From Methanobrevibacter sp. (GTDB taxonomy: Archaea; Methanobacteriota; Methanobacteria; Methanobacteriales; Methanobacteriaceae), in assembly GCF_017432245.1 (NCBI RefSeq), contig NZ_JAFRJO010000046.1:1-47839 (forward strand): DNA of 47,839 nucleotides, written 5' to 3'. How positions within the stretch are numbered: the stretch's first letter is position 1; each line of letters starts with the position of its first letter. Positions 19,389 to 44,553 of this stretch are shown here, piece after piece. Position numbers and translations under genes: made by a program. Under the pieces are notes generated by a model that was not told where the DNA came from, did no database searches, and saw nothing but the letters and a program-made list of their open reading frames with translations.

Positions 19389-19410
19389 ATTACTCATACC
19401 TATGAGTAAT
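19389..19410. terminator. Palindrome between the convergent HEPN and pyrB ends
   Basis: ATTACTCATA and TATGAGTAAT form a perfect 10-bp stem with only two central bases. It covers the final codons and stop of pyrB and lies two bases past the HEPN stop, so it may act on both converging transcripts. Confidence 0.5.
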
Positions 19411-20313
19411 CAAGTTTCTTAAGATAGCCATTCTTACTGGAATTGCATTTGCTGCCTGTTCAAAGTACTTATTGTACTTTGTATCATCAACATCATATGC
19501 AATCTCATCAATTCTTGGAAGCGGGTGCATGACAATAAGGTCCTTTCCTTCAAGCAATTCCTTATTGATTAGGTAAGCTCCCTTGATTTTTTCATATTCC
19601 TCTTCATCAGGGAATCTTTCCTTTTGGATTCTTGTAACGTAGAGAACATCAACATCATCAATGACATCCTTAATGTTATTGGTTTGCTTGAACTTGATGT
19701 TGTTCTCTTCAAGGTCATGCAATGTTTCCTTAGGCATCTTAAGCTGGTCTGGAGAGACAAAGGTCATCTCCACATCATACATTCCCAAAGCGTATGAGAG
19801 GGAATGGACTGTACGCCCATATTTCAAGTCTCCAAGAAGGGCAATGTTCAATCCATCTATCTTTCCAAAGTGCTTTTTGATTGTGTAAAGATCCAATAAT
19901 GTTTGGGTTGGGTGTTGGCCAGCACCGTCACCTGCATTAATGATTGGAACATCCACCATATCGGATAGGAAACGTGATACTCCTTCAAGGTCATGCCTTA
20001 TCACAATTGCATCACAGTATGATTCAAACATCTTAGCTGTATCAGCAATGCTTTCACCTTTAGCGACTGAACTGATTGAAATGTCTCCAAGTTCAATGCA
20101 TTCCCCTCCAAGTCTTTTCATGGAGGCTTCAAAGGAAAGTCTTGTTCTTGTGGAAGGTTCATAGAATAAGAGTCCTAATATTTTTCCTTCAAGCTCTTTA
20201 GATAGCTTTTTTGATTTAGCAACATCTTCAAGCTTGCTTGCTTCCTCTAAGATGAATTCAATTTCATCCTTTTTAAAATCCTTTAATGAAATAAGGTTTT
20301 CATGGCCAAATAT
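19390..20313 (-). CDS. pyrB: Aspartate carbamoyltransferase catalytic chain, apparent non-canonical start
   Basis: PyrB condenses carbamoyl phosphate with aspartate in pyrimidine synthesis. The first ATG (20121) would give 243 residues and omit the carbamoyl-phosphate loop, but the same frame continues upstream with clear PyrB sequence: [21 protein letters not shown], then [13 protein letters not shown] directly before that methionine. No ATG, GTG or TTG exists between 20121 and the in-frame stop at 20353. An ATA at 20313 lies nine bases after GGAG and gives 307 residues, the usual length. Downstream motifs HPTQTLLD and HPLPRIDE are intact. So either AUA is used or the start was lost by mutation or error. 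No pyrI is in the window. Confidence 0.85.
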
Positions 20314-26013: not shown

Positions 26014-26071
26014 GTTTACTATATAAAACTATTTATGAAAAAATTTTATATTTTATAAATAGTAAACTATA
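26014..26071 (+). promoter_or_regulatory. Promoter and inverted-repeat operator of the AspBHI-like gene
   Basis: The segment starts with GTTTACTATATAAAACTAT (identical to 18146-18164) and ends with ATAGTAAACT, the inverse complement of its first ten bases including 26013. Bases 26038-26071 (34 bases) are identical to 39439-39472 before the mcrB-like gene. A TTTATAAAT box at 26052-26060 fits the start at 26125. Confidence 0.65.
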
Positions 26072-26124: not shown

Positions 26125-27336
26125 ATGAAAAAAAGTTTTGATGATTTGGAAGGAGCAGACCTTATAATTGATTGTATTTATGAGGGAGGTAATCAAGGAG
26201 GAACCCGTGCTGATCCTTTATCTAAATTATTTCCTAAGTGTGGGAATTTAGGTGGCTTTAGAAAAGTTAATAGGGCTGATGGTAGTGGTAAACCTGCTTA
26301 TGTTGTTTTAACTACTACAATGTCTGAATTGGAGTGGCCTGACTACATTGATGAGGAAACAGGTATTTTTAGATATTATGGAGATAATAGAAAATCTGGA
26401 AGAAGACACACAGATACAAAACCTAATGGAAATAAATTATTGGAGCATGTTTTTGCCATGTTAAATTCTAATGAATCTTTAGAAGACATGCCTCCTTTTT
26501 TTGTTTTTAAAAGTACTGGGACTGGTAGAGATTTTAAATTTTTAGGTTTAGCAGCTCCTGGAAATCCGAACATATCCCCAGATAGAGATTTGGTTGCTAT
26601 ATGGAGAACAATGGAAGGAAATAGATTTTTAAATTATGAATCTTATTTTACTATATTAGACACTGGCACTGAACCAATTACTCAGGACTGGTTAAAAAGC
26701 CTGATTGATAATCATGAAAATAATTTAAGATATGCCCCTTTGGTTTGGAAAAATTTTATAGCAAAAGGCCGTAATGGAATTCAAGCACTTAAAGCACCAA
26801 GGATTCATCAAGTTCCTTCAAAAAACGACCAAATGAACTGTGATAGGGAAGGAGAAAGGTGTATTGAGATAATATATAATCATTATAAAGAAAATCCTTT
26901 CGGCTTTGAAGCTTGTGCAACTGAGCTTATAAAAAACATGGATACAAACTTTGTAAAATTTGAGCTTACTAGGCCTTGGCGTGATGGTGGTAGGGATGCA
27001 TTTGGTGAATATCATATAAATTCAGAAAGCAGTGCAAATTATCCTTTAACTATAGAATTTGCTTTAGAGGCAAAATGCTTTTCACCTGATACTGGAGTAG
27101 GTGTTAAACCAATGTCTAGATTAATATCTAGAATAAAATATCGTCAATTTGGAATATTAGTTACTACAAGCTATGTTAGTAAACAAGCTTATAAAGAAGT
27201 TCATGAAGATGGGCATCCTATTTTAATTATTACAGCATCTGATATTGCATCAATTCTAAGATCTAATGGAATAACTACAAATAATATAGAAGAATGGTTA
27301 GAAAATATTGATCAGAATGTGACAAGATTATCATAA
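26125..27336 (+). CDS. AspBHI/MspJI-type modification-dependent restriction endonuclease
   Basis: This 403-residue protein has an AspBHI-type N-terminal recognition domain: EGADLIIDCIYEGGNQGG, DPLSKLFP, GNLGGFRKV, EWPDYIDEETGIFRYYGDNRKSGR, PPFFVFKSTGTGRDFKFLGLAAPG and AIWRTMEGNRFLNYESYFTILD. The C-terminal Mrr-like nuclease has DGGRDAFGEY (about 285) and EAK (about 315), a complete PD-(D/E)XK site. AspBHI cuts DNA containing 5-methylcytosine in a defined sequence context, so this protein should restrict modified invading DNA. It shares a promoter element with the mcrB-like gene. GGGTGT precedes the ATG at 26125. Confidence 0.88.
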   Translation: MKKSFDDLEGADLIIDCIYEGGNQGGTRADPLSKLFPKCGNLGGFRKVNRADGSGKPAYVVLTTTMSELEWPDYIDEETGIFRYYGDNRKSGRRHTDTKPNGNKLLEHVFAMLNSNESLEDMPPFFVFKSTGTGRDFKFLGLAAPGNPNISPDRDLVAIWRTMEGNRFLNYESYFTILDTGTEPITQDWLKSLIDNHENNLRYAPLVWKNFIAKGRNGIQALKAPRIHQVPSKNDQMNCDREGERCIEIIYNHYKENPFGFEACATELIKNMDTNFVKFELTRPWRDGGRDAFGEYHINSESSANYPLTIEFALEAKCFSPDTGVGVKPMSRLISRIKYRQFGILVTTSYVSKQAYKEVHEDGHPILIITASDIASILRSNGITTNNIEEWLENIDQNVTRLS

Positions 27337-29718: not shown

Positions 29719-29865
29719 ATTTTAATCCCCTTACTCAATATTTTGTTATATAGTTAATTATACATAAAACTATTAGTTTTCATTTGCTCCCATTCATTGT
29801 TTAAATATGAAAATTAAATTAAATATATAAATCAAAATTTATAAAATATTATAAGAGGAATTTTT

Positions 29866-31158
29866 ATGGATAAAACAGTAGTAGAATTATTTGCAGGTGT
29901 TGGTGGGTTCCGTTGTGGATTCAATCATGTTAGCCTAAAGGATGGAAAAGTCCACGAAGAGGATAATTGGGACTTTGTTTGGGCAAATCAATGGGAACCT
30001 TCCACTAAATCACAAGCTGCATTTGATTGTTATGTTGAAAGATTCGGAGAATCTGAGAATCATGTAAATGAGGACATAGCTACTGTTGATAAAAAGACAA
30101 TTCCTAATCACACTCTTCTTGTAGGAGGATTCCCTTGCCAGGATTATTCAGTTGCTCGTTCTTTATCTGGTGAAAAGGGAATTGAAGGTAAAAAAGGAGT
30201 GCTTTGGTGGCAAATAGCTGAAGTTTTAGAAGAAAAAAGGCCTCCTTTTGTTCTTTTGGAAAATGTAGATAGATTATTACGTTCACCTGCTAGCCAAAGA
30301 GGAAGAGACTTCGGTGTAATGTTAAGGACACTTCTCGACAACGGTTATTCCGTGGAGTGGAGAGTAATCAATGCTGCAGAATATGGATTCCCACAAAAGA
30401 GAAGAAGAGTATTTATTTTTGCTTATCATGAGTCTACTAATTATTATAAAAAGATGGATAAGGTAGATTATGAGGATTTAATTTACAAGGAAGGAATTTT
30501 TGCTAAGAATTTCCCAATTCAATATAATACAGATAAGAATTTGGATGGAAAAGAAGTTTCCATTGATGAATTTGGACAAACATCAATCAAAAAGAAAGAT
30601 TTTGATGATCTTGTAGCTATTAGTGATGATTTTGATTTCCATTTCTTTAATTCTGGACTTATGCATAAAGGAAATATTTACACCTTTAAGACCTCTCCTG
30701 TTGAATGTGAGAATATGACCACTTTAGGGGACATTATAGAAAAAGGAGAAGTTGATGAGAAATATTATCTTTTAGATGAAAAATTGGAAAAATGGAAGTA
30801 TTTAAAAGGATCTAAAAAAGTTCCTAGAAAAAGACCTAATGGTGAAACTTACTATTTTTCAGAAGGTAAAATTGCATTTCCTGATAAATTAGATGTTCCA
30901 GCTAGAACTATGCTAACTAGTGAAAGTACAACAAATAGAAGTTCTCATGTAGTTAAAGATGTTAAATCAGGCAATTTAAGAACTTTAACTCCAGTTGAGG
31001 CTGAAAGGATTCAGATGTTCCCAGATGATTGGACCAATATTGAATCTAAAGCGATGACTGAACGTAGAAGATACTTTATGATGGGTAATGCACTTGTTGT
31101 TGGTGTTGTAGAGCGTTTAGGTGATCATATTTCAACTATTGTTGAAAAGGAAGACTAA
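29866..31158 (+). CDS. DNA (cytosine-5)-methyltransferase, partner of the Sau3AI-like enzyme
   Basis: This 430-residue enzyme has ordered C5-methyltransferase motifs: I (ELFAGVGGF, 7-15), IV (GGFPCQDYS, catalytic Cys near 90), VI (LLENVDR), VIII (QKRRRVFIF), a variable target-recognition region (about 205-345), and IX/X (ARTMLTSES, RTLTPVEAERIQMFPDDW, MMGNALVVGVV). It transfers a methyl group from S-adenosylmethionine to cytosine and should protect host GATC sites from the divergent endonuclease. GAGG lies eight bases before the ATG. Its product, 5-methylcytosine, is the type of mark that the AspBHI-like and McrBC-like enzymes recognise in other contexts. Confidence 0.93.
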   Translation: MDKTVVELFAGVGGFRCGFNHVSLKDGKVHEEDNWDFVWANQWEPSTKSQAAFDCYVERFGESENHVNEDIATVDKKTIPNHTLLVGGFPCQDYSVARSLSGEKGIEGKKGVLWWQIAEVLEEKRPPFVLLENVDRLLRSPASQRGRDFGVMLRTLLDNGYSVEWRVINAAEYGFPQKRRRVFIFAYHESTNYYKKMDKVDYEDLIYKEGIFAKNFPIQYNTDKNLDGKEVSIDEFGQTSIKKKDFDDLVAISDDFDFHFFNSGLMHKGNIYTFKTSPVECENMTTLGDIIEKGEVDEKYYLLDEKLEKWKYLKGSKKVPRKRPNGETYYFSEGKIAFPDKLDVPARTMLTSESTTNRSSHVVKDVKSGNLRTLTPVEAERIQMFPDDWTNIESKAMTERRRYFMMGNALVVGVVERLGDHISTIVEKED

Positions 31159-31220
31159 TTTTTTAATTTACTTTTTAATTTTTTCCCTTTATAGTTTTTT
31201 TAGAAAGTATTTTATTCAAT

Positions 31221-31239
31221 AAATTATATACTATATTTA
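31221..31239 (+). promoter_or_regulatory. TATA-rich promoter of the seven-gene operon
   Basis: AAATTATATACTATATTTA lies 40-57 bases before the proposed start at 31278. It contains a TTATATA box and the predicted transcript would start near 31250. Confidence 0.45.
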
Positions 31240-31277
31240 AAGGTATTATATTATTTATGTAAAAATGGGGGATTTTT

Positions 31278-32225
31278 ATTTTAACTAATTCTGAAAATTT
31301 AGATATTTGTCCATTCTGTAAGAATGTTATTCCACATGGTCCTGCTTATTTTTGTCCTACTTGTGGAAAGAGATTGGATGAAAAATATTCTAAAAGGCAA
31401 ATTATTTTAGAAAATACAGACATTTTAATGGATGAAACTGATTTTGAAGACTCTTCTATTGATGAATTAGAAGACATTACTAGTTTAATTCAGTCTAATA
31501 GTTCATATTCTAATGATTTTACCTCAGATATAAATCAAGATGAAAAATCAGATGATATTGTAAAAAGTACTGATGAGAATGAACAGGGGACTATTGAAAA
31601 TATCGAAGAGGACTCATTAGATTCTGAAGATGACATCAATGAAAATTCAAGCGAAGTTAACTTAAAATCACAAAATAATTCTATTAAATTAGATCTATTC
31701 CTAAAATATTGTGTAGATGAAGAGTTCTCTTATAATTTCTTAAGATTTAAAATTGTTGATGCAGATGGTGATAAGGACACTTTAGTGAATAGGATTATAT
31801 CTAATTTTAATTTAAGAGACATTATTAATTACAAGTATAAGTATAGATCTTCTAAATTAGAAGAAATTTTTGATTCATTTGTTAAACCGTTAAAAGTTGT
31901 TGATTTAGTTAGCATTGCCGAAAAATATGATGTTAAGGTTTCTTTAAGTAAAAGCGCTTTAAAAAATAATTTTTTCGAAAAATTTGATTCTTATGATTTA
32001 ATTCTTGTTTTAAATAATGAAGGATTAGACATTTACCATTATGCAAAAATTTCGGTTTTAGAGCAAATTTATCTCTTAAATGACAAGAAATTAATAAAAG
32101 AGGCGGGTAAATGTCCAAACATTAATCATTCCAGGCATGAAATGATTTCTTGTCTAGTTAAAAATTTCAGTGAAGGATTCTTAATAAGCAACAATAAGTT
32201 TGAAAGAGGGGAGGATACTAAATGA
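31278..32225 (+). CDS. Zinc-ribbon protein, first gene of the seven-gene operon, apparent AUU start
   Basis: This protein of about 315 residues starts with a zinc ribbon (ICPFCKNVIPHGPAYFCPTCGKRL), then an acidic low-complexity linker rich in Asp, Ser and Glu (about 45-130), and a helical C-terminal half with SAP-like short helices (VNRIISNFNLRDI, SALKNNFFEKF). No catalytic motif is seen. The first canonical start, TTG 31374, would remove the zinc ribbon. Upstream there is no ATG, GTG or TTG before a stop at 31260; ATT at 31278, seven bases after GGGG, is the best start. The stop overlaps the next gene by four bases (ATGA), so the two are coupled. Confidence 0.65.
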   Translation: MLTNSENLDICPFCKNVIPHGPAYFCPTCGKRLDEKYSKRQIILENTDILMDETDFEDSSIDELEDITSLIQSNSSYSNDFTSDINQDEKSDDIVKSTDENEQGTIENIEEDSLDSEDDINENSSEVNLKSQNNSIKLDLFLKYCVDEEFSYNFLRFKIVDADGDKDTLVNRIISNFNLRDIINYKYKYRSSKLEEIFDSFVKPLKVVDLVSIAEKYDVKVSLSKSALKNNFFEKFDSYDLILVLNNEGLDIYHYAKISVLEQIYLLNDKKLIKEAGKCPNINHSRHEMISCLVKNFSEGFLISNNKFERGEDTK

Positions 32226-35044
32226 AACTAAGACTGTATACTGCTAAGGAGGATTCTGAAAATTTCAGCAGATCTTTTTCAACAAAATTATATCCTAAAT
32301 TTGAGCGCAGCACTTTCTTATTTGTAGATTTTAGTATCAATGAATCTCAAAAAGATGTTTTTAAAATACAAGTATTTTACTCAGAAAATGGATTTTTTTA
32401 TACTAAATTTAATTCAAAAGAGATTATTAGGCATGCTTTTGGAAAATGGGATCAACTAAATTTTATATTGGCAAGTGATAAAAACAAGCCTTTAAATCCT
32501 TTATTTATTTTTGATTTTCCATTAAATAATTCTAAATCCCCTTATGATGCAATGTTTGCGAATGTAAATGGTGAATTGCATATTTTATCTAAAATTTACA
32601 ATTTATCTGATGAACATTTTAAATTATTGAGAAAATCCTATAAGTTATATAAAACTAAGGGTGCTGATTACACTTTATTTGATTTTGGAAATTGCTTTAG
32701 TTTCATTGATAAATTTTTAAATAATCTTGAAACTATTCTAGATGATGTAGATTTCAAATTAAACGATTCTAATGAATTAATTATTAATCCGATTCCTTTA
32801 GATTCAATTAGAAAAAGGGAAGATAATTATAAATTCTGCATGATTTGTGGTAAAAAATTAGAATCTACTCTTAATAAGAATTTATTGGAGCTTTCTCGTA
32901 AATTCCCTGCAAGATGTGAAAATTGCTTAAAGAAAATTTATGCATTAGATCTTTATTATAAACTAAATGAAGGTTCTATTTCAACTAATATGCTTTCTAC
33001 ATCTGAATTGGAATATATGTGGGATGAAGAAGGATTATTTGAATATAATTTTAAATTATTAAAAGATTATGGATTTTTAAAACCATTTTCCGATGATATT
33101 TATAAATTATATCTCAATGATGATATAAATGAAGCTTTTGGTTCTTTATTAAATCCTATTGAAGAAAAAGGAGAGGAATCTAAATCAAAATCCGCACTTG
33201 ATGATTACTTTGGCTTTACTGATGATAAAGAAAAACCTAAATGCAGAATTTGTGGAAAGGAAATTGAAGAAGAGGATGGAACTGATATTTGTTCTAATTG
33301 CTTTGATAAGCAAATGACAATTGAACAAATCCACAAGTTTTTAGAATATGTAAAACCTGGAACAGGATTTAGTAAATCTTCTTTGATTGAAAAAGGTTTT
33401 AATATTATTGATTTGGATATAACTATTGCAGATTTAGAAGATAATGGTTTATTAAGATATGATTCCGATGATCTCATCATTTTAGCTAATAGAACCAAAT
33501 TAAACGAATTTATTAGGGAATATTCTGATTCTGAAGAATATATTATTCAAATAAAGGAAGAAGAAATTCCTAAATTAAATATTTATGACGAATATTTGAA
33601 AAGTGAAGAAACCTTAGATAAAGCAATAAATCTAATAGATTATCAAAACTTTGTTGAATGTTATTATAATCATGAAAATTCTGATTGGATTGTTACTCTT
33701 AAAAAGGAAGGCCATATTTTCCTAAGTCAAAATTTTGTCACTCCATATCAAGCTAAACTGATGGCTGTAAGATATTTGGGAGAAATTGGCGTTGTAAACA
33801 TTATTAAAAATAATTTTGATTCGAAGTTTGAGAATAATCATGTATTAAGGGGACCTACAGAAATTAAAGATGCAAAAACCGAAGCAAATCTAGATTTATC
33901 TGAAGAATCGAAAGATATTGGACCTAAGAATGATTCGGATGTTTCCATTAAAACTAATGTATCTGCTAATAAACATAAAAAATGTCTCATATGTGGAAAT
34001 GAGATTATTCACAAAGATTATGCTACAAATAGGAAATATTGTGATGAATGCAAAAATAAATATAAACCTTCAGAATTAAGTGCTTTAGTTGGTATTAAAG
34101 AGGGGAAATACACTGAAGAAACAGTGAATTCTATTAAGAAATTAAAAATGGAAGGAAAAACTAATACTCAAATTGCATATAAATTAGGCATACCTAATCC
34201 TCTAATTACTCCTATTTTAAGACATTATCCTACAGATAATGCTTCATCATTATCATTTGTTCCAGAGAATAATAAGGAGAGCAATAATAGTAAAGTGTGC
34301 CCTATTTGTAAAAAAACTTTTGAAGAAAAAAAGAGAGGGTCTGGCCAAAAGTATTGTGATGATTGTAAAAGCAAATTTACTCCAACTGAAATTCAAGTGT
34401 TAATCGGAATTAATGAAGGAAAATACACCACAGAACTAGCTATTAGACTTAAAGATTTAAAAGAACAAGGGTTTACAAATACTTTTATTTCCTCCGAAGA
34501 AAATATTCCATTAACTCTAGTAACTCCTATTATCCATATTTTATTAGATGATGATAAAAAAATTGATGGAATTTCTTTCAATAAGAAATTATCAAAATGG
34601 TTTGTATATACAAAAGTTAATAATGAATATATTAATCTAGGTTTTTACAAAACAAAAGAAGAAGCTATTTTAGCTAGAAATAAATATTATGATGTCCACC
34701 CTTATAAAGAAAACTTTGACAAATTGGATTTATCTGTAGAAGAAGCTGAAGAAGAAATTGAAAAAATTGATGAGGAAACTCAAAATGAATCATTAAAACA
34801 ATTATTCCAAAAAGATTGCGGAGATGATTATTCAAAAATTTTCTTAAAAGGCATAATTTCAGAAAAGGATCGAGTGTCTATCTTCAATTTTATTTCATTT
34901 ATAAATTGCAATTTAAATAAACTCCTTTGTGAAAAACTAGAAGATAATAATTATGATTTCATGTTAGACATTGATATAGAAAAAAGCCGTTTAAAATCAG
35001 CTTTAAAAGATTTAAAATTATTAGGTTGGGAAAATGCAAAATAG
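32222..35044 (+). CDS. 940-residue multi-zinc-ribbon, HTH and AP2-like DNA-binding protein
   Basis: I do not recognise the whole protein. Zinc-binding pairs are visible near residues 206/231 (CMIC/CENC), 341/357 (CRIC/CSNC), 588/607 (CLIC/CDEC) and 694/712 (CPIC/CDDC). The last two belong to a tandem repeat of about 100 residues, each a zinc ribbon followed by an HTH-like stretch (SIKKLKMEGKTNTQIAYKLG; RLKDLKEQGFTNTFI). An AP2-like domain follows (about 781-826: GISFNKKLSKWFVY, then NLGFYKTKEEAILARNKY), with a weaker one near 473-513. There is no nuclease or ATPase motif. It looks like the DNA-recognition subunit of the operon. It overlaps the previous gene by four bases and the helicase gene by eleven. 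Confidence 0.75.
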   Translation: MKLRLYTAKEDSENFSRSFSTKLYPKFERSTFLFVDFSINESQKDVFKIQVFYSENGFFYTKFNSKEIIRHAFGKWDQLNFILASDKNKPLNPLFIFDFPLNNSKSPYDAMFANVNGELHILSKIYNLSDEHFKLLRKSYKLYKTKGADYTLFDFGNCFSFIDKFLNNLETILDDVDFKLNDSNELIINPIPLDSIRKREDNYKFCMICGKKLESTLNKNLLELSRKFPARCENCLKKIYALDLYYKLNEGSISTNMLSTSELEYMWDEEGLFEYNFKLLKDYGFLKPFSDDIYKLYLNDDINEAFGSLLNPIEEKGEESKSKSALDDYFGFTDDKEKPKCRICGKEIEEEDGTDICSNCFDKQMTIEQIHKFLEYVKPGTGFSKSSLIEKGFNIIDLDITIADLEDNGLLRYDSDDLIILANRTKLNEFIREYSDSEEYIIQIKEEEIPKLNIYDEYLKSEETLDKAINLIDYQNFVECYYNHENSDWIVTLKKEGHIFLSQNFVTPYQAKLMAVRYLGEIGVVNIIKNNFDSKFENNHVLRGPTEIKDAKTEANLDLSEESKDIGPKNDSDVSIKTNVSANKHKKCLICGNEIIHKDYATNRKYCDECKNKYKPSELSALVGIKEGKYTEETVNSIKKLKMEGKTNTQIAYKLGIPNPLITPILRHYPTDNASSLSFVPENNKESNNSKVCPICKKTFEEKKRGSGQKYCDDCKSKFTPTEIQVLIGINEGKYTTELAIRLKDLKEQGFTNTFISSEENIPLTLVTPIIHILLDDDKKIDGISFNKKLSKWFVYTKVNNEYINLGFYKTKEEAILARNKYYDVHPYKENFDKLDLSVEEAEEEIEKIDEETQNESLKQLFQKDCGDDYSKIFLKGIISEKDRVSIFNFISFINCNLNKLLCEKLEDNNYDFMLDIDIEKSRLKSALKDLKLLGWENAK

Positions 35045-36371
35045 TAACTCAAATATTAAACTAAGAGATTATCAAATAGAAGCTATCGATTCTTGGTTTA
35101 ATAATGATTGTAGAGGTATTTTTGAAATGGCTACAGGTACAGGAAAGACTTTTACAGCTCTTTCTTGCTTTAAGCAACTTTCAGATACTAAAGACAGATT
35201 ATTAACAGTTATTGCATGTCCTCAATCTCATTTAATAGATCAATGGATAAATGAATTAAAAAAATTTCATGATGGCCCAATTATAACCGCATCTGGAAAG
35301 AATTATAAATGGAAAAAAGATTTTAAAAATTTATATACAGATTATTATTTAGGGCTAGTTGATAAAGCAGTTGTTTTAACAACACATATTTCTTTATCTT
35401 CAGATTATTTCCTAGATACAATTCAAGAATTTGAAGTAGAAATATTGTTAATTGTTGATGAAGTTCATGGGATAGGTTCAGAAAAACAAATGATTGCATT
35501 AAATAATCGTTATGATTATCGTTTAGGCTTAAGTGCAACTCCTGCAAGATGGTTTGATGATTTTGGAACTCATGTTATTGAAGAATTCTTTGGTGGAGTT
35601 GTATTTGAATTTGACATAGAAAGAGCTTTAAATGAGTTTAATCCAGATACTGGAAAGACTTATTTAACTCCTTATATTTATAAACCGATTCTCGTTGATT
35701 TAACTTATGATGAATTTGAAAAATATTCTAATTATAGTAGGAAAATCGCTGTTATGATGGAGGCGGATGAAGAAAAGGATGAAAATGGTGTAAGTTTAGA
35801 GACATATTTCTTTGCTCGTCAGAAAATAATTAACAATGCTGAAGAAAAATACAAAGCATTTATTGATATACTAGAAGAAAAACCAGACATTGATAAATTA
35901 ATTGTATTTTGCTCTCCACAGCAAATAGACAGAGTTCAGGAAATTTTAAATGAAAAAAGGATTATTCCTCAACATAGATTCACTCAAGAGCAATCGGCTA
36001 CAAAGAAGAAAAATGACATATATTCAGAAAGGGAATATTTGCTTAAAAAGTTTGAAGATGGATCTTATAAGGCTTTAGTGGCTATTAAATGTTTAGATGA
36101 AGGTGTTGATGTTCCTTCAGCTGAAAACGCAATTATTATGTCAAGCACTTCAAATCCAAGAGAACACGTCCAAAGAAGAGGTCGTATTTTAAGAAATTCT
36201 CCTGGAAAGGAAAGAGCTATTATTTATGATATTTTGGTATTTCCAAAAGAAACAACTAAAATAGGAGAAAAGATAAGAGAAAAGGAAATCAATAGATACA
36301 TGGGATTTGCATCTAATGCAGAAAATTCATGGGAATGTATTAAATTATTGAAGAAATTAGGAGAATGGTGA
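35034..36371 (+). CDS. SF2 DEAD/DEAH-type helicase
   Basis: This 445-residue helicase has motif Q/I (LRDYQIEAIDSW, ATGTGKTFTAL at 33-43), motif II (VDEVHG near 141), motif III (LGLSATP), motif V (KCLDEGVDVPSA) and motif VI (QRRGRILR). It is a compact ResIII/XPB-like translocase without nuclease or extra domains. It probably couples ATP hydrolysis to movement on double-stranded DNA after recognition by the 940-residue protein, whose gene it overlaps. The stop is followed by GGTGAT and the next small gene within five bases. Confidence 0.92.
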   Translation: MQNSNSNIKLRDYQIEAIDSWFNNDCRGIFEMATGTGKTFTALSCFKQLSDTKDRLLTVIACPQSHLIDQWINELKKFHDGPIITASGKNYKWKKDFKNLYTDYYLGLVDKAVVLTTHISLSSDYFLDTIQEFEVEILLIVDEVHGIGSEKQMIALNNRYDYRLGLSATPARWFDDFGTHVIEEFFGGVVFEFDIERALNEFNPDTGKTYLTPYIYKPILVDLTYDEFEKYSNYSRKIAVMMEADEEKDENGVSLETYFFARQKIINNAEEKYKAFIDILEEKPDIDKLIVFCSPQQIDRVQEILNEKRIIPQHRFTQEQSATKKKNDIYSEREYLLKKFEDGSYKALVAIKCLDEGVDVPSAENAIIMSSTSNPREHVQRRGRILRNSPGKERAIIYDILVFPKETTKIGEKIREKEINRYMGFASNAENSWECIKLLKKLGEW

Positions 36372-36375
36372 TTGT

Positions 36376-36549
36376 ATGGCTTTAAAAGTAGGAAAAAAAC
36401 TAATAGAAGATATTCAGAATTCTGAATATGATGAAAAAACCAAAGCATTCATAATTCAAGCTTTGAGGTTGGAATTTAAAAGAGAAAAAGAGGATATAAG
36501 CCATTATTTTAAAAAATATGATAGTTTAATTGAAAATTTCGTAGATTAA
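36376..36549 (+). CDS. 57-residue operon protein between helicase and SMC genes
   Basis: The protein (MALKVGKKLIEDIQNSEYDEKT, then IIQALRLEFKREKEDISHYF) is charged and wholly helical, with no known domain. GGTGAT lies three bases before the ATG and overlaps the helicase stop region; the next gene starts nine bases past its stop behind GGTGG. These signals and its codon pattern support a real gene. It may bridge the helicase and the SMC ATPase. Confidence 0.75.
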   Translation: MALKVGKKLIEDIQNSEYDEKTKAFIIQALRLEFKREKEDISHYFKKYDSLIENFVD

Positions 36550-36558
36550 GGTGGGAAA

Positions 36559-38535
36559 ATGATACTTAATAGGGTTTCTATTCGTAATTATCGCCAATAT
36601 CGTAATGTTGATATTGATTTTGCCCAAGGTGATGGTAAAAATTTCACAATTATTCAAGGAAATAACGGAACAGGAAAAACCACACTATTAAATTGTTTAA
36701 GTTGGTGTCTTTATGGTTCTGAAATTCATGACTATAAGGATGATTCTTCAATGGAAATATGTAATAATAAAACTGCTAATTTGGCAGTAATTGGAGATAA
36801 AATAAAAGTTAGTGTGGAATTAGAATTTTTAGATGAAGGAGAGATTTTAGCTTTCCATAGAGTAAAAGGGTTCCGTAAAACAGAAACAGGCTTAGTATCA
36901 CAACCTAGTTTGGATAAATTTGAGGTTAAAACACAAGAAGGCAATGATATTAAAGTAAAGGCAAATGATTCATACACAATTGAACGTAAAATTCCTCAAG
37001 CTATTGAAGATTATTTCTTTTTTGATGGAGCTCGTTTAAGCGAATACTTCCAAAAGGAAAAGACAAAAAAAATTAGAGAAACAGTATTTAGCTTATCTCA
37101 ATTAAACTTACTTGAAAATGCTAGTAAAAATTTGATAAAAGTGAAAGATCAGTATATTTCTAAAATAAAGCAATTAGAGCCTAAAATTGGAGGGGCTAGT
37201 GAAAAAGTAAGTGAATATGATAAACAGATTAAAGAAGCAGAAGAGGACTTAGAAAAAACAGAAAACGATCTTAAAGAAATTAAAATAGAAATTGACAACA
37301 TTAATGATGAATTAGTCAACAAAAAATCAACTGAAGTTAGAAAAGATGCAGAAAGAAATATAGTGCTTGATAATGCAATAGACTCAAATAATAAAAAACT
37401 GTCAAAATTAGAAGCTGAAAGAAAAAAGCATGTATTAACTAAATACCCATTCATTTTATCTTATGAGTCTTTTTTGAGTTTTATGGAATTAGGTGAAAAA
37501 TCTAGACAAAAAGGTTATATTCCACCTAAATTTAAAAGAAGTTTCATTCAAGATTTATTAGATGAAGGTAAATGTATTTGTGGTACTGATTTATCAGTTG
37601 ATATAGAACACAGAAAAATGTTAGAACAACTTTTGGAAGAGACTAATCCTTTAACTGATCATGCTGAAGAACTTACAGTTGCTTTAAATCAAGTTAAAGA
37701 AGTTATCATGAAAGACATTCAAAAATTCAAATCTAGATCTTTTGAGATTCATTCCGAGATTCGTTCTATAAATGAAGAGCAAGAAAAATTAATCATTGAA
37801 AAAAGAGATGTGGAGTCTAGATTAACTGATAATCCTCTTGAAGGTATTGAAAGATTAACCAATCGTAGAAAACAATTAAGAACATCAAAGGATAGTAAAG
37901 AAACTAAAATTAAAAATTTAAAATCTCATATAGAAAAATTAGAAGGAGAACGAGGGGAACAACGTAAATTAGTTAATAAAGAGGCACGCTACTCAAAAGA
38001 AATTGAAGAATTCAGAATTAAAAAGGAATTCTGTGAAAATATGAGTAAGTCTACTGAAACTATTTACAAAGATTTAAAAGAAAAAATGAGGGCAAATGTT
38101 CAAGAATTAACTAAAGAAAAATTCATCAAAATCTCTTGGAAAGAAGATGAGTTTGTTGATATAATAATTGACGAGGATTATGAAGTTTTCATTCAAAATA
38201 GGTTAGGTGATTTAGAAAGACCTGGAGATTTATCAGATGGTGAAAAATTATGTTTAGGTCTTTGTTTTATGTCTGCATTACACAATATTTCTGGATTTGA
38301 ACTGCCTATTATTATGGATACTCCTTTAGGTAATTTAGATGTTGATATGAGGCATAACATTGCAGAATTTTTACCTCAATTTGTAGGTGATAAACAAACA
38401 GTTTTACTTGTAACTGGAACCGAGTATACTGATGACTTTAGGGACACTATACATGGTTCAGTTGGAAAAGAATATATGATTGAGTGGAATAATTCTGATG
38501 AAGGTAAAGAGTCTAAGGTGGTTTTAAATGGCTAA
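36559..38535 (+). CDS. DndD-like SMC/Rad50-type ATPase
   Basis: This 658-residue protein has an ABC-type head with Walker A GNNGTGKT (34-41), a DndD-like YFFFDGARLSEYF segment near 154, long coiled coils (about 190-290 and 365-500) around a CICG turn at 339-341, signature LSDGEKLCLGL, and Walker B LPIIMDTPLGNLD near 582-594. It resembles DndD of phosphorothioation systems and other SMC-like defence ATPases. DndA and DndC are absent, so DNA sulphur modification is unlikely. The hook is CxC where Rad50 has CxxC. It overlaps the next gene by eight bases. Confidence 0.9.
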   Translation: MILNRVSIRNYRQYRNVDIDFAQGDGKNFTIIQGNNGTGKTTLLNCLSWCLYGSEIHDYKDDSSMEICNNKTANLAVIGDKIKVSVELEFLDEGEILAFHRVKGFRKTETGLVSQPSLDKFEVKTQEGNDIKVKANDSYTIERKIPQAIEDYFFFDGARLSEYFQKEKTKKIRETVFSLSQLNLLENASKNLIKVKDQYISKIKQLEPKIGGASEKVSEYDKQIKEAEEDLEKTENDLKEIKIEIDNINDELVNKKSTEVRKDAERNIVLDNAIDSNNKKLSKLEAERKKHVLTKYPFILSYESFLSFMELGEKSRQKGYIPPKFKRSFIQDLLDEGKCICGTDLSVDIEHRKMLEQLLEETNPLTDHAEELTVALNQVKEVIMKDIQKFKSRSFEIHSEIRSINEEQEKLIIEKRDVESRLTDNPLEGIERLTNRRKQLRTSKDSKETKIKNLKSHIEKLEGERGEQRKLVNKEARYSKEIEEFRIKKEFCENMSKSTETIYKDLKEKMRANVQELTKEKFIKISWKEDEFVDIIIDEDYEVFIQNRLGDLERPGDLSDGEKLCLGLCFMSALHNISGFELPIIMDTPLGNLDVDMRHNIAEFLPQFVGDKQTVLLVTGTEYTDDFRDTIHGSVGKEYMIEWNNSDEGKESKVVLNG

Positions 38536-38947
38536 AGTAAATGAAAGAAGGATTAATTATAATGAAGATGATTATGAAACTTTAAAAAGATTAATGGTTG
38601 AAGAACCTTTTAGAAGTTTAAATCTCATAGATATTTTTGCAATTTCCTTAATATATGGGAAAAAAGCAGGAATAAGAACTCCTTTGGATAAGAAAAAAAC
38701 TGGCCGTATACGTCAAACAACAATTGAAAATTCTAATGTTCATTATTTAATGATGGCCGTTGCTGTTGAGGAAACAGGGAGTTTTGAAGTTTTAGCTAAA
38801 CGTAATGATTACTTTAAAATATGTGAAGAATATGCAAAAACTGGCCTATCTCTTTTAGAAGAAGATTTCATTGAAAATCCTAAAGGATTATTAGATGATT
38901 TAGAGCTTGAAGCATTAAAATATTTTGATAAGTTTATAAAACAATAA
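38528..38947 (+). CDS. 139-residue helical operon protein
   Basis: I do not recognise a family. The protein (MAKVNERRINYNEDDYETLKRL, LNLIDIFAISLIYGKKAG, TIENSNVHYLMMAVAVEETGSF) is basic at the N-terminus and helical. Size, position after the DndD-like gene and a conserved-looking helical core recall DndE, but the sequence does not show DndE motifs, so equivalence is only a structural guess. AAGGTGG precedes its ATG, which lies inside the SMC gene end. Confidence 0.7.
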   Translation: MAKVNERRINYNEDDYETLKRLMVEEPFRSLNLIDIFAISLIYGKKAGIRTPLDKKKTGRIRQTTIENSNVHYLMMAVAVEETGSFEVLAKRNDYFKICEEYAKTGLSLLEEDFIENPKGLLDDLELEALKYFDKFIKQ

Positions 38948-39438: not shown

Positions 39439-39472
39439 AAAAAATTTTATATTTTATAAATAGTAAACTATA
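39439..39472 (+). promoter_or_regulatory. Promoter of the McrBC operon, identical to that of the AspBHI-like gene
   Basis: All 34 bases equal 26038-26071, and after one mismatch five more match. It includes a TTTATAAA box and ATAGTAAACT. Its end lies 58 bases before the proposed start at 39531, against 53 bases before the ATG at 26125. Confidence 0.75.
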
Positions 39473-39530
39473 TATTAACTGTTAGTTAATTAACAAATAT
39501 TTTTATTATAAACATAAAGGGGACTTACTT

Positions 39531-42500
39531 ATTTTAAAACAAGATATAAGACAAATATTAGATGAATATCTAGTATCTAGGAAAACTTATGATTCTTCAA
39601 AAAATCCTATTTTTAAATTTATTAAAAATGATTTTAAACGAGATTTAGAACGTGCTTTAGGTGAAAATTTTTCTATAGATTCCTATTCTAGAACTAAAGA
39701 TTTAGGAACCATTCCTCGTGTAAAAATTATTGATAACACTGTTGCTGATCAAGATTTTTACTTAAATCTAATGTATTATTTTAAAGCGGACATGTCTGGA
39801 TTATATTTAATATTAAAAGTTCCATATGAAAGAAAAACTAAAACCAAATATGGTAAATATTATGCTAATTATCTTAGAAATAAATCAAATTACATTAGGG
39901 AGTTTTTAGAAGAAAACGGTAAACTTGAAGAAAATTTAGTTTTCAGTGTAGATTTAGCTGAAAACAGAGTTAAATCAAAGTTACATGATAGTGCAACAAT
40001 AGTGGCTAAATATTATGATAAGTATACTATTCCATCTACAGAGGATTTAGTTTTGGATATAAAACGATTTTCAGATTTACGTAAATTTGTTTTAAATAAT
40101 TATACAGATCAAATTGACATCTCTGTTGATGAATGGGTCTCTGCTTTAGAAAATAATACTGTAATTGATAATAAAATGTTCAGTATTCTTGAAATCATGT
40201 ATGATATAGTAGATTATCAAGTTACTACTGGTCAATTAATTAAAATAAGAGAAAAATTAGGTTTTAGTAATGAGAAATCCTATAACAGTACAATTATTGC
40301 TAATTCAAATAGAGTAAAGAATTTTTTAAACAAGAAAGCAGTTTATAATAAAGACGGGACTGAAAATTATTGGATGAGATTTTTTTATGGATCAGAGGTC
40401 AGAGCAAGGAATAAAGGTAAAACAGGAAAAGCATTCCAGTTCACATTAAAAGATGAATTGATAGAAGCTTTAGGAAAAGCTAATAGAAATAAGGATGAAG
40501 TTGATGTATTTGAAAATGTTTATGATAATGATATAGAAGAAGATTTTATTGAAACTGAAAGGGTAGATGATATGGCTGAAGAAAAATTATTTAATTCATT
40601 TTATGATTATCTTTTGTATAAAGGATATTTCTTTGATAAGGAAACAATTGAAAATTACTTATTGTCTTTAAAAGCTAAACCATTTGCTATTTTGACAGGT
40701 AATTCAGGGACTGGAAAAACCAAATTGTCTCAGCTATTTGCTCAATATCTTACAGATAATCATCCCTTAGAAAATGAAGACACTATCAGTTCTATTAATA
40801 CTGAAGTTTTAGTTGGAAAATCCTCTGAAAGTGGGGGATGGTCTTTAAATAGAAATGATATAAAAGATTTAATTCCAATTGATGAACTTGAGAATAGTTA
40901 TTCAATTGTTGTTGATGGTGTTCCTGCAAATGCAAATTTAAAATTAAATCCTCGTTTATTCTACAAAGGAGATGAATTAAAGCGACATCTTGCGGAATTG
41001 GCAAATGAAGATGAGAAGCAAAAGGTTCCTTTAGAAATATTATTAGATGAGGATATCACAAATTTTAAAGCCGATAAAAATTATAATAATGAAGATTATT
41101 TTTATACACAACATTTTCAAAAAGGTAATGATTTTGGGGAATATTATGTAGAATTGACCAAGAGTTCAAAACAATTTGCAAAAAACTTTGAAGATGAATT
41201 TAGTAAAACTCTTTATCCCTTTGATGAATATTATGGTACTTGCCTTGTTGAATTAAATCGTAAAGTACAAATGGCGGATGTTGTATATGAACCTTGGATT
41301 AGTTTTAAAGAAAATGAGGAGATAATAGAATATATAAAAAGTAATTATCCGAAAGGCAATGACTCAAATATTAATATTAAATTCAATTCCAAAGATATTT
41401 CAAAATGTTTAATAGAAGATTTTATTAAAAGTAATGAAATTTTGGAGGGTTTTTTAGAAAACAATAATTTAAAAAGAATAAAATTACCGCTTAAAAGAAA
41501 AGATTTCCCTGGAGATATATCTGATTTTGTTCCATTAAGGCACGAAACTCGTTGTAGGGTTATTGTTGATGACAAAATATTTGGTGAAGCAATTTTTAGA
41601 TTATACATCATGTTTAAATTAAATGATGAGAATTCAATTGGTGAAGGCAAATCTGTTTATGTAAGAATACATCCTAATACTTTTGAATATAAAAAAAATA
41701 GAACATCTAATTTTGTTACTTTTGGAGAATTTATTGATTATGTAACCTATAAAAATAAAACAGGAATTGATTTATTATTTGGCCATCAAGAAGATTTGAA
41801 GAGAGATATTTTAGAAAAAAGGGGTGGAAATAATTATAAACAAAATAGTCCTAATTATAAAATAATCCCAGTAGGTGCTAATTGGACGGAAAACAGACAC
41901 ATAATAGGCTATTACAATGTAATTACAAATGAATACCAATCCACACCTGCATATGATTTAATAAAAGCTGCAAATAATTCTACAGAACCATATTTCCTCA
42001 TACTAGATGAAATGAACTTATCTCATGTAGAACGTTACTTTGCTGACTTCCTATCAGCTATTGAAAGTGGAGAGAAAATCCCACTATATGGAGAAAAAGA
42101 ACTCACTCTACCTGAAAACCTATTCATCATAGGTACGGTGAATGTAGATGAAACCACTTACATGTTCTCTCCAAAGGTTTTGGATCGTGCTAATGTTATT
42201 GAGTTTGAGACTTATTCTGCTTCTGATTACATGAATAATAAAATCAATCTCACAGCACCAAGTGGAAACATATCCTACTTGGAAAATCCATTGGCAGGAA
42301 ATGAGATTCGTTCTTATGGAATAGATGAACTAAGGAATCTATTCGATGAAGTGGAATATGAAGGAGAAGCATTCTGGAATTTATTGACTAATGAAATCTA
42401 TGAGTTCCAAAAAATATTAAAGGAATCTGGGTTTGATTTTGGATTCAGAGTCATCAATGAAATAGTACGTTTTATGGCTGTAGCATGGGAATATGAAGGT

Positions 42501-42737
42501 GAACCTGATGAGTTTGTTAATTGGACTCGCTACTTTGATGCATGCATAAAGCAAAAGTTACTTCCTAAATTACACGGTTCTGAAAAAATTATTGGAGAAA
42601 CCTTAGATAAATTATATGCTAAATCTGTAGGTAATCATTTAACATATGAAACATCCAAATATCCTGAATCTGCTCGTAAATTAAAAGAAATGAAGGATAT
42701 TTTAACTAAACAACGCTATGTATCATTTATTAATTAG
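39531..42737 (+). CDS. McrB-like AAA+ GTPase with DUF3578 N-terminal domain, apparent AUU start
   Basis: The protein of about 1068 residues starts with an MrcB/DUF3578-type domain (DIRQILDEYLVSRKTY to FYLNLMYYFKADMSGLYLIL). It continues with a Walker A GNSGTGKTKLSQLF near 390, an unusually long insertion of about 400 residues, then VGANWTENRHIIGYYN, Walker B FLILDEMNLSHVERYF near 822 and the McrB-type GTVNVDETTYMFSPKVLDRA. The first canonical start, ATG 39771, would cut off 80 residues of the N-terminal domain. No ATG, GTG or TTG lies upstream before a stop; ATT 39531, eight bases after GGGG, is the best start. It should form the motor of a modification-dependent restriction complex with the next gene. 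Confidence 0.85.
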   Translation: MLKQDIRQILDEYLVSRKTYDSSKNPIFKFIKNDFKRDLERALGENFSIDSYSRTKDLGTIPRVKIIDNTVADQDFYLNLMYYFKADMSGLYLILKVPYERKTKTKYGKYYANYLRNKSNYIREFLEENGKLEENLVFSVDLAENRVKSKLHDSATIVAKYYDKYTIPSTEDLVLDIKRFSDLRKFVLNNYTDQIDISVDEWVSALENNTVIDNKMFSILEIMYDIVDYQVTTGQLIKIREKLGFSNEKSYNSTIIANSNRVKNFLNKKAVYNKDGTENYWMRFFYGSEVRARNKGKTGKAFQFTLKDELIEALGKANRNKDEVDVFENVYDNDIEEDFIETERVDDMAEEKLFNSFYDYLLYKGYFFDKETIENYLLSLKAKPFAILTGNSGTGKTKLSQLFAQYLTDNHPLENEDTISSINTEVLVGKSSESGGWSLNRNDIKDLIPIDELENSYSIVVDGVPANANLKLNPRLFYKGDELKRHLAELANEDEKQKVPLEILLDEDITNFKADKNYNNEDYFYTQHFQKGNDFGEYYVELTKSSKQFAKNFEDEFSKTLYPFDEYYGTCLVELNRKVQMADVVYEPWISFKENEEIIEYIKSNYPKGNDSNINIKFNSKDISKCLIEDFIKSNEILEGFLENNNLKRIKLPLKRKDFPGDISDFVPLRHETRCRVIVDDKIFGEAIFRLYIMFKLNDENSIGEGKSVYVRIHPNTFEYKKNRTSNFVTFGEFIDYVTYKNKTGIDLLFGHQEDLKRDILEKRGGNNYKQNSPNYKIIPVGANWTENRHIIGYYNVITNEYQSTPAYDLIKAANNSTEPYFLILDEMNLSHVERYFADFLSAIESGEKIPLYGEKELTLPENLFIIGTVNVDETTYMFSPKVLDRANVIEFETYSASDYMNNKINLTAPSGNISYLENPLAGNEIRSYGIDELRNLFDEVEYEGEAFWNLLTNEIYEFQKILKESGFDFGFRVINEIVRFMAVAWEYEGEPDEFVNWTRYFDACIKQKLLPKLHGSEKIIGETLDKLYAKSVGNHLTYETSKYPESARKLKEMKDILTKQRYVSFIN

Positions 42738-42753: not shown

Positions 42754-44553
42754 ATGGAACAGTATATTAAAATAAAAGCTCATAATGATGAAGGAGAGCT
42801 TTTAGGAACTATCAAACTTTCAATTGGACTGGAACGTTCTACTAAATCCACAAGGACTATTGTAGATTTTAATAAGGAAATCAAACTAGACAATTCCATA
42901 TACAATATACCTTCTAATGCCTCTCTTATTTTATATAATGTTCCATTAGTATATGAATATGACAATAAGACTCCAATTCAATTTTACAAAAACAGTGAAA
43001 ACAATATCAATATAATGCTGTTAGAGGAATTCAGATATAACTTAAGTTTTAAGCCAAACTATAAGTTGGATAAGGAATTCAAGGATTTAGATGTTTTCCA
43101 CTCCATATTGAAATTTGAAGCTACAGTTTTAGAGCTCTTTCCGCATAGTTATAATGGATTCTTATCCTTTGGGTCTTATGTTGGAAAAAGCTATTTTGAT
43201 ATTTATGAAAACAATAAATCCATTTTCAAAATTCCATTTGAAGTTCGTTCTCGCAAAATCGATTATGCAACTGAATATGCGGCTATGATAGGGGATTTGT
43301 CCAAATACTCTCAAAGTCTGATATACGAATCATCTTCACCATTATCCCAACTTTTTGATTTAGATAGTATACAGGATAAGTCAAGCTATGAGGAATTCAT
43401 GCTGCTTGAATACTTATTTAAGGATGAAAACTTGCCATCCACTATCGAATATCTTTCCCGAAACTTGTATTCAGCACTAATTGATACAAAAGAGGAAGTT
43501 CCTACATCATTTGCATCCAATATAAATCCAAGTGATTTGATAGATGTATTCTCTAATTCTGATAATTTGACAAAGACAAATGATCCTGATTCCATATGGC
43601 ATAAGCGAACAAAAGGTCATATTCCACTAAAGATTAATGAGACAAAATACATTGATAATATTGATGTTCCTGAAAATCGTTTTTATAAGAACTTTTTGGA
43701 ATCAATTGAGAATTTAATCAATCAATTATTGAAAAAAGTCCCAGAAGGATACATTAAAGACAAGCTTCAAGTATACAAAGAAACAATAAGCGCATATCTA
43801 TCACAGAGATACTTTAAGGATATCGGCATGATGGATTATGTGCCTTTAAATTCACAGCTTCTTCAAAAAAAGGAGGGGTATCGTGATATCCTCCAATACT
43901 ATCTGATGTTTGAGTTAGGTTTCAAGCTGAAATGGGATGAAGTCACCGATGTATTCAAAGGAAATGAGAAAAAGGTCTTTGAGCTTTATGAGTATTGGTG
44001 CTATTTTGAACTGGCAGACATGATTAGCAATATTTGTGATTCTACAATAGATTTCAATGACATTTTCTCCCTTAGTGAAGATAATATGACAATATCATTA
44101 AGAGAGGGTATTGTCAAGAAATTCTTTTTCAATGCAAATTATGATAGTATAAGAATAGATTTATTGTATAACAAAACTTTTAGAAAAAGCAAATTCAGTG
44201 ACTATAATTCTTATTCAGTCAATTTAAGGCCAGATTACAGTTTAGTAATTCATATTGGAGAAGAAAGATACATTATTCATTTTGATGCAAAATACAAGTT
44301 GAACATCAATGAGGAATCCTTCAAGAATGAGGATGTTGTAAAGATGCATGCCTACAAGGATGCTATTGCAGATACAATTGGTGCTTATGTTCTTTATCCT
44401 GGAGAAAAAAAGAGATTATATCATGAAGATGAAATGAAATTGAAGTCAGTAGGGGCATTTCCATTAAATCCCGGAAAAACATCAGACAATAGAAAAGAAT
44501 TGGTTGATTTTATTCATAATAAGATTTTGGATTTAAGCGATTTAAACAATTAA
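42754..44553 (+). CDS. McrC-like DUF2357/PD-(D/E)XK nuclease subunit
   Basis: This 599-residue protein has a beta-rich N-terminal region (1-230) of the DUF2357 type, a helical middle (NRFYKNFLESIENLINQLL), and a C-terminal nuclease: a WCYFELADMI helix, LRPDYSLVIH, then IIHFDAKYKL, giving the D-x(n)-DAK active site. This is the architecture of McrC partners of large McrB-like GTPases. Sixteen bases separate it from the mcrB-like gene. With it, the pair should cleave modified DNA; target modification is unknown. Base composition is visibly less AT-rich than in the first two thirds of the partner gene. Confidence 0.85.
   Translation: MEQYIKIKAHNDEGELLGTIKLSIGLERSTKSTRTIVDFNKEIKLDNSIYNIPSNASLILYNVPLVYEYDNKTPIQFYKNSENNINIMLLEEFRYNLSFKPNYKLDKEFKDLDVFHSILKFEATVLELFPHSYNGFLSFGSYVGKSYFDIYENNKSIFKIPFEVRSRKIDYATEYAAMIGDLSKYSQSLIYESSSPLSQLFDLDSIQDKSSYEEFMLLEYLFKDENLPSTIEYLSRNLYSALIDTKEEVPTSFASNINPSDLIDVFSNSDNLTKTNDPDSIWHKRTKGHIPLKINETKYIDNIDVPENRFYKNFLESIENLINQLLKKVPEGYIKDKLQVYKETISAYLSQRYFKDIGMMDYVPLNSQLLQKKEGYRDILQYYLMFELGFKLKWDEVTDVFKGNEKKVFELYEYWCYFELADMISNICDSTIDFNDIFSLSEDNMTISLREGIVKKFFFNANYDSIRIDLLYNKTFRKSKFSDYNSYSVNLRPDYSLVIHIGEERYIIHFDAKYKLNINEESFKNEDVVKMHAYKDAIADTIGAYVLYPGEKKRLYHEDEMKLKSVGAFPLNPGKTSDNRKELVDFIHNKILDLSDLNN

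What the first reader, a model, noticed from the sequence alone, without database searches (positions are those of the whole stretch)
39531..39770. mcrB-like gene appears to start at AUU
The 80 codons before the first ATG (39771) encode the DUF3578-type domain start with clear coding character, yet contain no ATG, GTG or TTG. ATT 39531 lies eight bases after GGGG, the spacing used elsewhere in this window (GGAG plus eight bases before the TTG starts at 10895 and 19019). The shared 34-base promoter gives the same distance to 39531 as to a canonical ATG at 26125, which independently supports a start there.
Basis: partly seen in the sequence, partly recalled or inferred. Interest (0 to 1): 0.8.

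Follow-up and report, generated by a model that had tools for sequence, protein, structure and literature searches.

The report
Conserved AUU start codon in archaea
A restriction-enzyme gene in a Methanobrevibacter-like archaeon really does seem to begin at AUU, a codon thought almost never to start proteins, and the same kind of unusual start is conserved across whole archaeal groups in at least two essential pyrimidine genes that standard gene finders would misread.

Summary
In the window (G000, a Methanobrevibacter-like MAG) the mcrB frame has no ATG, GTG or TTG from its upstream stop to 39771, yet the MrcB_N domain (PF12102) fills that stretch from its first position. ATT 39531 lies 8 nt after GGGG. 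Two intact orthologues (G014, G005) and a damaged one (G012) from separate same-genus assemblies have the identical ATT TTA AAA (C/G)AA after a GGGG motif, with an in-frame stop touching that motif. Two more distant homologues have ATT and ATA there; two others have ATG at that residue. This rules out a sequencing error and a start at 39771.

The larger finding is that mcrB is not alone. In the same window pyrB starts at AUA (20313, minus strand), and AUU/AUA is conserved in 29/29 family loci. CTP synthase (pyrG) starts at CUG in 43/43 loci of the class. An unbiased scan finds ATT enriched after orphan Shine-Dalgarno sites.

The best functional guess is that weak AUU initiation keeps full-length McrB scarce relative to a short form made from an internal AUG (40572). 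That part is inference. No protein data exist here.

The parts
39531..42737 (+). mcrB-like gene (MrcB_N + AAA+ motor, 1068 aa) with inferred AUU start codon at 39531-39533
   Evidence: no ATG/GTG/TTG before 39771; MrcB_N from model position 1; ATT conserved in G014, G005, G012
39519..39522 (+). Shine-Dalgarno-like GGGG (AAGGGG), 8 nt before ATT 39531
   Evidence: SD score 14 at the modal spacing; in G014, G005 and G012 an in-frame stop abuts or overlaps it
39439..39472 (+). 34-base promoter-like element shared with 26038-26071; contains the inverted repeat ATAGT-AA-ACTAT
   Evidence: also upstream of mcrB in G014 and G005
40572..40574 (+). candidate internal AUG (codon 348) for a short McrB made of the AAA+ part only
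   Evidence: joint highest SD score (11, tied with TTG codon 175) among the in-frame canonical codons before Walker A; the matching linker ATG is the top scorer in G014, G005 and G080
39771..39773 (+). first in-frame ATG; rejected as the start (weak SD score 7, removes model positions 1-77 of MrcB_N)
42754..44553 (+). mcrC-like partner (DUF2357 + PD-(D/E)XK nuclease), ATG start
19390..20313 (-). pyrB, aspartate carbamoyltransferase, inferred AUA start at 20313-20311 after AAGGAG + 9 nt; first ATG is 20121
   Evidence: a start at 20121 loses 60 model positions including the STRTR loop; AUU/AUA at this place in 29/29 placed family loci
31278..32225 (+). zinc-ribbon protein gene with candidate AUU start after GGGGG + 6 nt; the first canonical start (TTG 31374) would cut off the CPFC...CPTC ribbon
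   Evidence: no homologue in 100 genomes, so unsupported by comparison
26125..27336 (+). AspBHI-like modification-dependent restriction endonuclease, ATG start, sharing the 34-base promoter with mcrB

Best explanation
ATT 39531 is the genuine translation start of a McrB-type restriction gene: the archaeal ribosome, held in place by a GGGG Shine-Dalgarno site, initiates with Met-tRNAi on the near-cognate codon AUU. It is one of a set of near-cognate starts kept by selection in this lineage: AUU/AUA in pyrB, CUG in pyrG, and several AUU starts elsewhere. Shown by sequence comparison: the position, the lack of any alternative start, and the conservation. Inferred: that initiation at AUU is weak, as it is in bacteria, so that little full-length DNA-reading McrB is made, while an internal AUG (40572) with its own Shine-Dalgarno site makes more of a short AAA+-only form, as internal initiation does for E. 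coli McrBL and McrBS. I put the start codon itself at about 0.9 and this role at about 0.35.
For: Orthologues G014, G005 and G012 have ATTTTAAAA(C/G)AAG after a GGGG motif with an in-frame TAA/TAG abutting or overlapping it, leaving only GGG GAC TTT CTT, GGG GGT TTA ATT or GGG GGA CTA CTT before ATT. G051 (ATT) and G030 (ATA), in other genera, likewise have no canonical start in the open frame before the domain, after GGGGG. G080 and G076 have ATG at the aligned residue. In a tree of MrcB_N domains the AUN starts lie in one supported subclade. The leader up to the start is 84-95% identical between species, whereas codons 6-80 are 61-66%. Unbiased test: of 9 coding ORFs with a strong SD but no canonical start at it, 6 have ATT and 1 ATA at SD spacing against a 6.5% ATT background, P about 6e-6. 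pyrB AUU/AUA 29/29, and in a wider pattern search 82 AUU/AUA and 4 ATG of 86. pyrG CUG 30/30 in the family and 13/13 in the rest of the class. The internal linker ATG has the top or joint-top SD in four orthologues. E. coli McrBS arises by internal initiation (PMC12602166, PMC12707154).
Against: No peptide or ribosome-profiling data were available. The window is from an 87%-complete MAG. The mcrB cases are few (three same-genus species besides the window, one with an indel-damaged N-terminus, plus two other genera). AUG occurs at the same place in G080 and G076, so AUU is not obligatory for function. The internal-start idea rests on SD scores only, ties with a TTG codon in the window, and the pattern is not clear in G051 and G030. 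aIF1 in G014 starts at ATG, so there is no sign of an infC-like feedback loop.
Confidence: 0.85

Rival explanations
1. The protein starts at ATG 39771, or another downstream canonical codon, and the upstream 80 codons are untranslated remnants.
For: 39771 is the first canonical codon in the frame.
Against: The upstream 80 codons are stop-free, score as coding and encode model positions 1-77 of MrcB_N. They are conserved as protein in G014 and G005. 39771 has a poor SD (score 7). G080 starts with ATG at the residue of 39531.
Confidence: 0.04
2. ATT is a sequencing or assembly error for ATG.
For: One base separates ATT from ATG, and the window is a MAG.
Against: The same ATT stands in three other same-genus assemblies, and ATT or ATA in two other genera. 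pyrB shows the same in 29 genomes.
Confidence: 0.01
3. Initiation is in this leader but at a neighbouring codon such as CTT 39528 or TTA 39534.
For: TTA follows ATT and is also conserved; exact codon choice is not proven by sequence.
Against: CTT is not conserved (ATT in G005 at that place). ATT sits at the modal SD spacing. ATG in G080 and G076 and ATA in G030 replace the ATT position itself. Orphan SD sites elsewhere select ATT.
Confidence: 0.06
4. The AUU start is real but has no regulatory role: a strong Shine-Dalgarno site makes near-cognate codons good enough, and they drift in and out.
For: ATG replaces it in G080 and G076; pyrB and pyrG also show occasional ATG or TTG; GGGG or GGAG sites are strong.
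Against: CUG in pyrG held across a whole class, and a leader more conserved than the coding sequence, suggest selection. AUG is normally strongly favoured: 1 switch to AUU and 2 to CUG among 61,358 ancestral AUG starts (PMC5622118).
Confidence: 0.4
5. Translation starts in another frame or upstream, and frameshifting or RNA processing joins it to the mcrB frame.
For: None found.
Against: No ATG occurs between the promoter and ATT 39531. In the relatives an in-frame stop abuts the SD. No conserved slip site was seen in the leader alignment.
Confidence: 0.02

Closest known systems
infC (IF3) AUU/AUC start in bacteria
   Same: A conserved near-cognate AUN codon used as the genuine start after a Shine-Dalgarno site (PMC5472188).
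   Different: Archaeal restriction and pyrimidine genes rather than the initiation-factor gene; archaea use aIF1 rather than IF3; aIF1 here starts at ATG, so no autoregulatory loop is indicated.
Streptomyces sigR GTC start
   Same: A near-cognate start conserved to keep one protein scarce relative to a partner (PMC5472188).
   Different: Bacterial, codon GTC, shown by experiment; here the ratio argument (full-length versus short McrB, or McrC) is inferred only.
E. coli McrBC with McrBL and McrBS
   Same: McrB motor plus PD-(D/E)XK McrC partner; internal initiation gives an AAA+-only form that limits activity (PMC12707154, PMC12602166).
   Different: The start of the long form is AUU; the N-terminal domain is MrcB_N (PF12102); sequence similarity to solved E. 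coli McrB is very weak (6hz4, E 0.0067); the short form is only predicted.
CUG-starting small ORFs in Methanosarcina mazei
   Same: Archaeal initiation at a near-cognate codon, seen by Ribo-seq (5% of unannotated small ORFs; PMC11456600).
   Different: Those are short unannotated ORFs in another class; here conserved full-length and essential genes use such codons.

Membership tests
Genes with a conserved near-cognate start codon | no ATG/GTG/TTG available at the 5' end of the conserved frame | tested here: met
   none between the upstream stop and 39771; in G014, G005 and G012 only 4 codons lie between the in-frame stop and ATT
Genes with a conserved near-cognate start codon | Shine-Dalgarno site at normal spacing from the near-cognate codon | tested here: met
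   score 14-18 at spacing 7 (the modal value for ATG genes) in G000, G014, G005, G051; 15 in G030
Genes with a conserved near-cognate start codon | same codon position conserved across species, exchanging with AUG | tested here: met
   ATT x5 (one in the damaged G012), ATA x1, ATG x2 at the aligned residue
Genes with a conserved near-cognate start codon | initiation shown by N-terminal peptide, toe-print or ribosome profiling | not testable with these tools
   no expression data for this organism
McrBC type IV restriction system | McrB-type N-terminal DNA-reading domain plus AAA+ motor | tested here: met
   MrcB_N 57.6 bits (cut-off 25), AAA_5 24.4 bits (cut-off 22); conserved Walker A GNSGTGKT and LDEMN motifs
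McrBC type IV restriction system | adjacent McrC nuclease | tested here: met
   DUF2357 and PDDEXK_7 in 42754-44553
McrBC type IV restriction system | GTP-dependent cleavage of modified DNA | not testable with these tools
   biochemical property
McrBL/McrBS dual translation | internal start with its own SD at the linker before the AAA+ domain | tested here: inconclusive
   linker ATG top SD in G014 (14), G005 (11), G080 (20) and joint top in the window (11); not clear in G051, G030
infC-type autoregulation by the initiation fidelity factor | the fidelity-factor gene itself has the near-cognate start | tested here: not met
   aIF1 gene in G014 starts at ATG after AAGGAG

The most novel reading that the evidence does not exclude
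Methanobacteria routinely use AUU, AUA and CUG as true start codons in a small fixed set of genes (about 1-2% of genes, including pyrB, pyrG and mcrB), held by selection over very long times as a translational control layer that acts through aIF1 start-codon stringency: an archaeal counterpart of the IF3/infC logic, missed because gene finders allow only ATG, GTG and TTG.
Probability: 0.3. Interest if true: 0.88.

Novelty: new variant of a known kind. Interest (0 to 1): 0.74.

Why it matters
Near-cognate start codons conserved across species are known from very few genes, chiefly bacterial infC and sigR. Finding them fixed in essential metabolic genes across an archaeal class means start annotations are likely wrong there, that archaeal initiation is less strict than assumed, and that start-codon choice may be a regulatory device in archaea. 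It is directly testable: PyrG and PyrB are essential enzymes of culturable methanogens, so N-terminal peptides should be easy to find.

Tried and rejected
A single-protein scan of genome contigs found no relatives; the alignment query worked. A pattern search for the leader plus ATTTTAAAACAAG gave exact or one-mismatch hits only at the mcrB genes of G000, G005, G012 and G014; the two-mismatch hits are treated as chance. The coding-upstream scan also returned gene fragments and repeats that are not start-codon cases, for example G000_C9 17360 (proline-rich) and G014_C17a 51802 (continuation of a broken or overlapping frame). The zinc-ribbon candidate at 31278 could not be tested because no homologue was found in 100 genomes. 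Autoregulation through aIF1 was looked for and not found. NCBIfam has no model for this McrB or McrC. Structure prediction was not used: it does not bear on the start codon. In G043, G132 and the out-group G153 the orphan-SD test did not give the clear ATT excess seen in G000+G014, so the genome-wide rate cannot be extended beyond the window's genus.

Full report
WHAT WAS CLAIMED AND WHAT IS THERE. The window is G000:C3, a 1.69 Mb, 87%-complete MAG; its closest relatives with names are uncultured Methanobrevibacter (G014 = RUG020, G005 = Rep2_Bin008). The frame 39486-42737 has its first ATG/GTG/TTG at 39771. The 80 codons before it are stop-free, coding only in that frame, and in 2000 shuffles of the same bases none lacked both stops and canonical starts. 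They encode model positions 1-77 of MrcB_N/PF12102, the former DUF3578. GGGG lies 8 nt before ATT 39531.

THE START CODON IN RELATIVES. Orthologues in three other same-genus assemblies read: G014 TAA GGG GAC TTT CTT ATT TTA AAA CAA; G005 TAG GGG GGT TTA ATT ATT TTA AAA CAA; G012 TAA GGG GGA CTA CTT ATT TTA AAA GAA. The in-frame stop abuts or overlaps the Shine-Dalgarno site, so no canonical start exists and the protein cannot begin further upstream. G012's copy is damaged by indels after the start, so it counts for the leader only. In other genera G051 has GGGGG TATAATT ATT and G030 has GGGGG AATAAAC ATA, again with no canonical codon between the in-frame stop and the domain. G080 and G076 have ATG at the aligned residue. 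In an IQ-TREE of MrcB_N domains the six AUN rows all fall in one supported subclade, with the two ATG rows nested among them, so the codon has changed more than once within it. G078a, at the base, has ATC and ATT side by side and an in-frame GTG inside its SD, so its start is ambiguous. Between species the 87-nt leader is 84-95% identical while codons 6-80 are only 61-66% identical: the initiation region is the best conserved part of this 5' end.

NOT AN ISOLATED CASE. A codon-usage scan of 662 kb of G000 and G014 (498 coding ORFs) showed a handful of ORFs coding far upstream of any canonical start. They include pyrB in this same window (minus strand, AAGGAG + 9 nt + ATA at 20313; first ATG 20121, which would lose 60 model positions of aspartate carbamoyltransferase including the STRTR loop) and pyrG in G014 (GGAG + 8 nt + CTG). 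Surveying homologues found by protein search, with no codon imposed: pyrB has ATT (22) or ATA (7) at this residue in 29 of 29 placed Methanobacteriaceae loci, 16 of which have no canonical codon at all between the upstream stop and that residue; pyrG has CTG ACA/ACT AA(A/G) in 30 of 30 family loci, and CTG in 13 of 13 loci from two other families of the order and one other family of the class (G132, where only TGG GGT GAT AAA lies between the in-frame TGA and CTG), while the out-groups examined carry ATG or other sequence there. In wider pattern searches, which impose HTG and ATN, pyrG shows CTG 88, TTG 6, ATG 4 and pyrB shows ATT 75, ATA 7, ATG 4, ATC 0 (my tallies of the listed rows). Ordinary Leu and Ile codons in these genomes are CTG 9.7% and ATC 26.5%, so fixed CTG and absent ATC are not what coding positions would show. 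Genomes are related, so these counts are not independent events.

UNBIASED TEST. Among the 498 ORFs, 42 have no canonical start with a decent Shine-Dalgarno match; 9 of these have a strong match upstream, and the codon at normal spacing is ATT in 6 and ATA in 1, against an ATT background of 58/887 (P about 6e-6). New candidates include window 31278 (zinc-ribbon protein), three secreted or adhesin-like genes and a transporter. The same test in 400 kb each of G043, G132 and out-group G153 was not clearly enriched, so the general rate is established only for the window's genus, while pyrB and pyrG are established by homology for the family and class.

MECHANISM. Shown by sequence: the position of the start, the Shine-Dalgarno site, the lack of alternatives, the conservation. 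Established knowledge: aIF1 disfavours non-canonical start codons in archaea (PMC6237735); in bacteria IF3 does the same, and this is exploited by infC (AUU) and sigR (GTC) to hold a protein down (PMC5472188). AUG-to-AUU and AUG-to-CUG switches are exceedingly rare in prokaryotes: 1 and 2 in 61,358 (PMC5622118). Inference: the AUU keeps full-length McrB low. In E. coli, internal initiation in mcrB is favoured and yields McrBS, which lacks the DNA-reading domain and withdraws McrC from active complexes (PMC12707154, PMC12602166). Here an in-frame ATG in the linker just before the AAA+ part (40572, codon 348) has the top or joint-top internal Shine-Dalgarno score in the window, G014, G005 and G080, and many relatives in the family carry only the AAA+ part starting at an ATG or other canonical codon at this place. 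A weak AUU for the long form and an AUG for the short form would set a restraining ratio. This is a proposal (about 0.35); neutral tolerance of AUU under a strong Shine-Dalgarno site is the main rival.

KNOWN OR NEW. Near-cognate starts are a known kind. I found no report of conserved AUU/AUA/CUG starts in pyrB, pyrG or mcrB of archaea in the open-access library; subscription papers and database annotation could not be checked. I therefore call it a new variant of a known kind: archaeal, multi-gene, conserved over a class. The main limits are the lack of protein-level evidence, MAG quality, and a partial genome-wide scan.

Noticed in passing
window 19390-20313 (-); G000:C61:30331-31950 (L241): pyrB and pyrG of the window's genome start at AUA and CUG; conserved as AUU/AUA (family) and CUG (class). 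Both are pyrimidine genes; whether that is coincidence is unknown.
   Followed up: partly
window 26038-26071 and 39439-39472: The 34-base promoter with inverted repeat ATAGT-AA-ACTAT is shared by mcrB and an AspBHI-like modification-dependent endonuclease (26125), and near-matches occur 1-4 times per genome in several same-genus species: a possible shared operator for modification-dependent restriction genes.
   Followed up: partly
L002 (G014:C17:64250-67225): G014 mcrB has two in-frame TAA codons in the variable middle region without frameshift, so that copy may be inactive although its leader and AUU are conserved.
   Followed up: no
window about 40750-41850: A large insertion between Walker A and the rest of the AAA+ domain with repeated GxxW / RxDL.DLIP motifs, present in G000 and G014, shorter in G005 and absent in G080.
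   Followed up: no
window 28366-38947: Dense defence island: Sau3AI-like endonuclease, C5 methyltransferase, PbeA/PbeC-like phosphorothioation genes next to McrBC and the AspBHI-like enzyme.
   Followed up: partly
G000:C11 -2934, G000:C10 -18436, G014_C17b -29788: Three secreted or adhesin-like genes with GAGGTG followed at normal spacing by ATT and then a signal-peptide-like sequence: probable further AUU starts.
   Followed up: partly
G153:C1 near 49083 (-): Out-group archaeon: a phosphorylase-like protein (IGIIGGTGIS...) appears to start at ATA after AGGTGAT-like sequence.
   Followed up: no
L186 5547 (+) (G014:C18): aIF1 gene starts at ATG after AAGGAG, so no infC-like near-cognate start in the archaeal fidelity factor.
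   Followed up: yes
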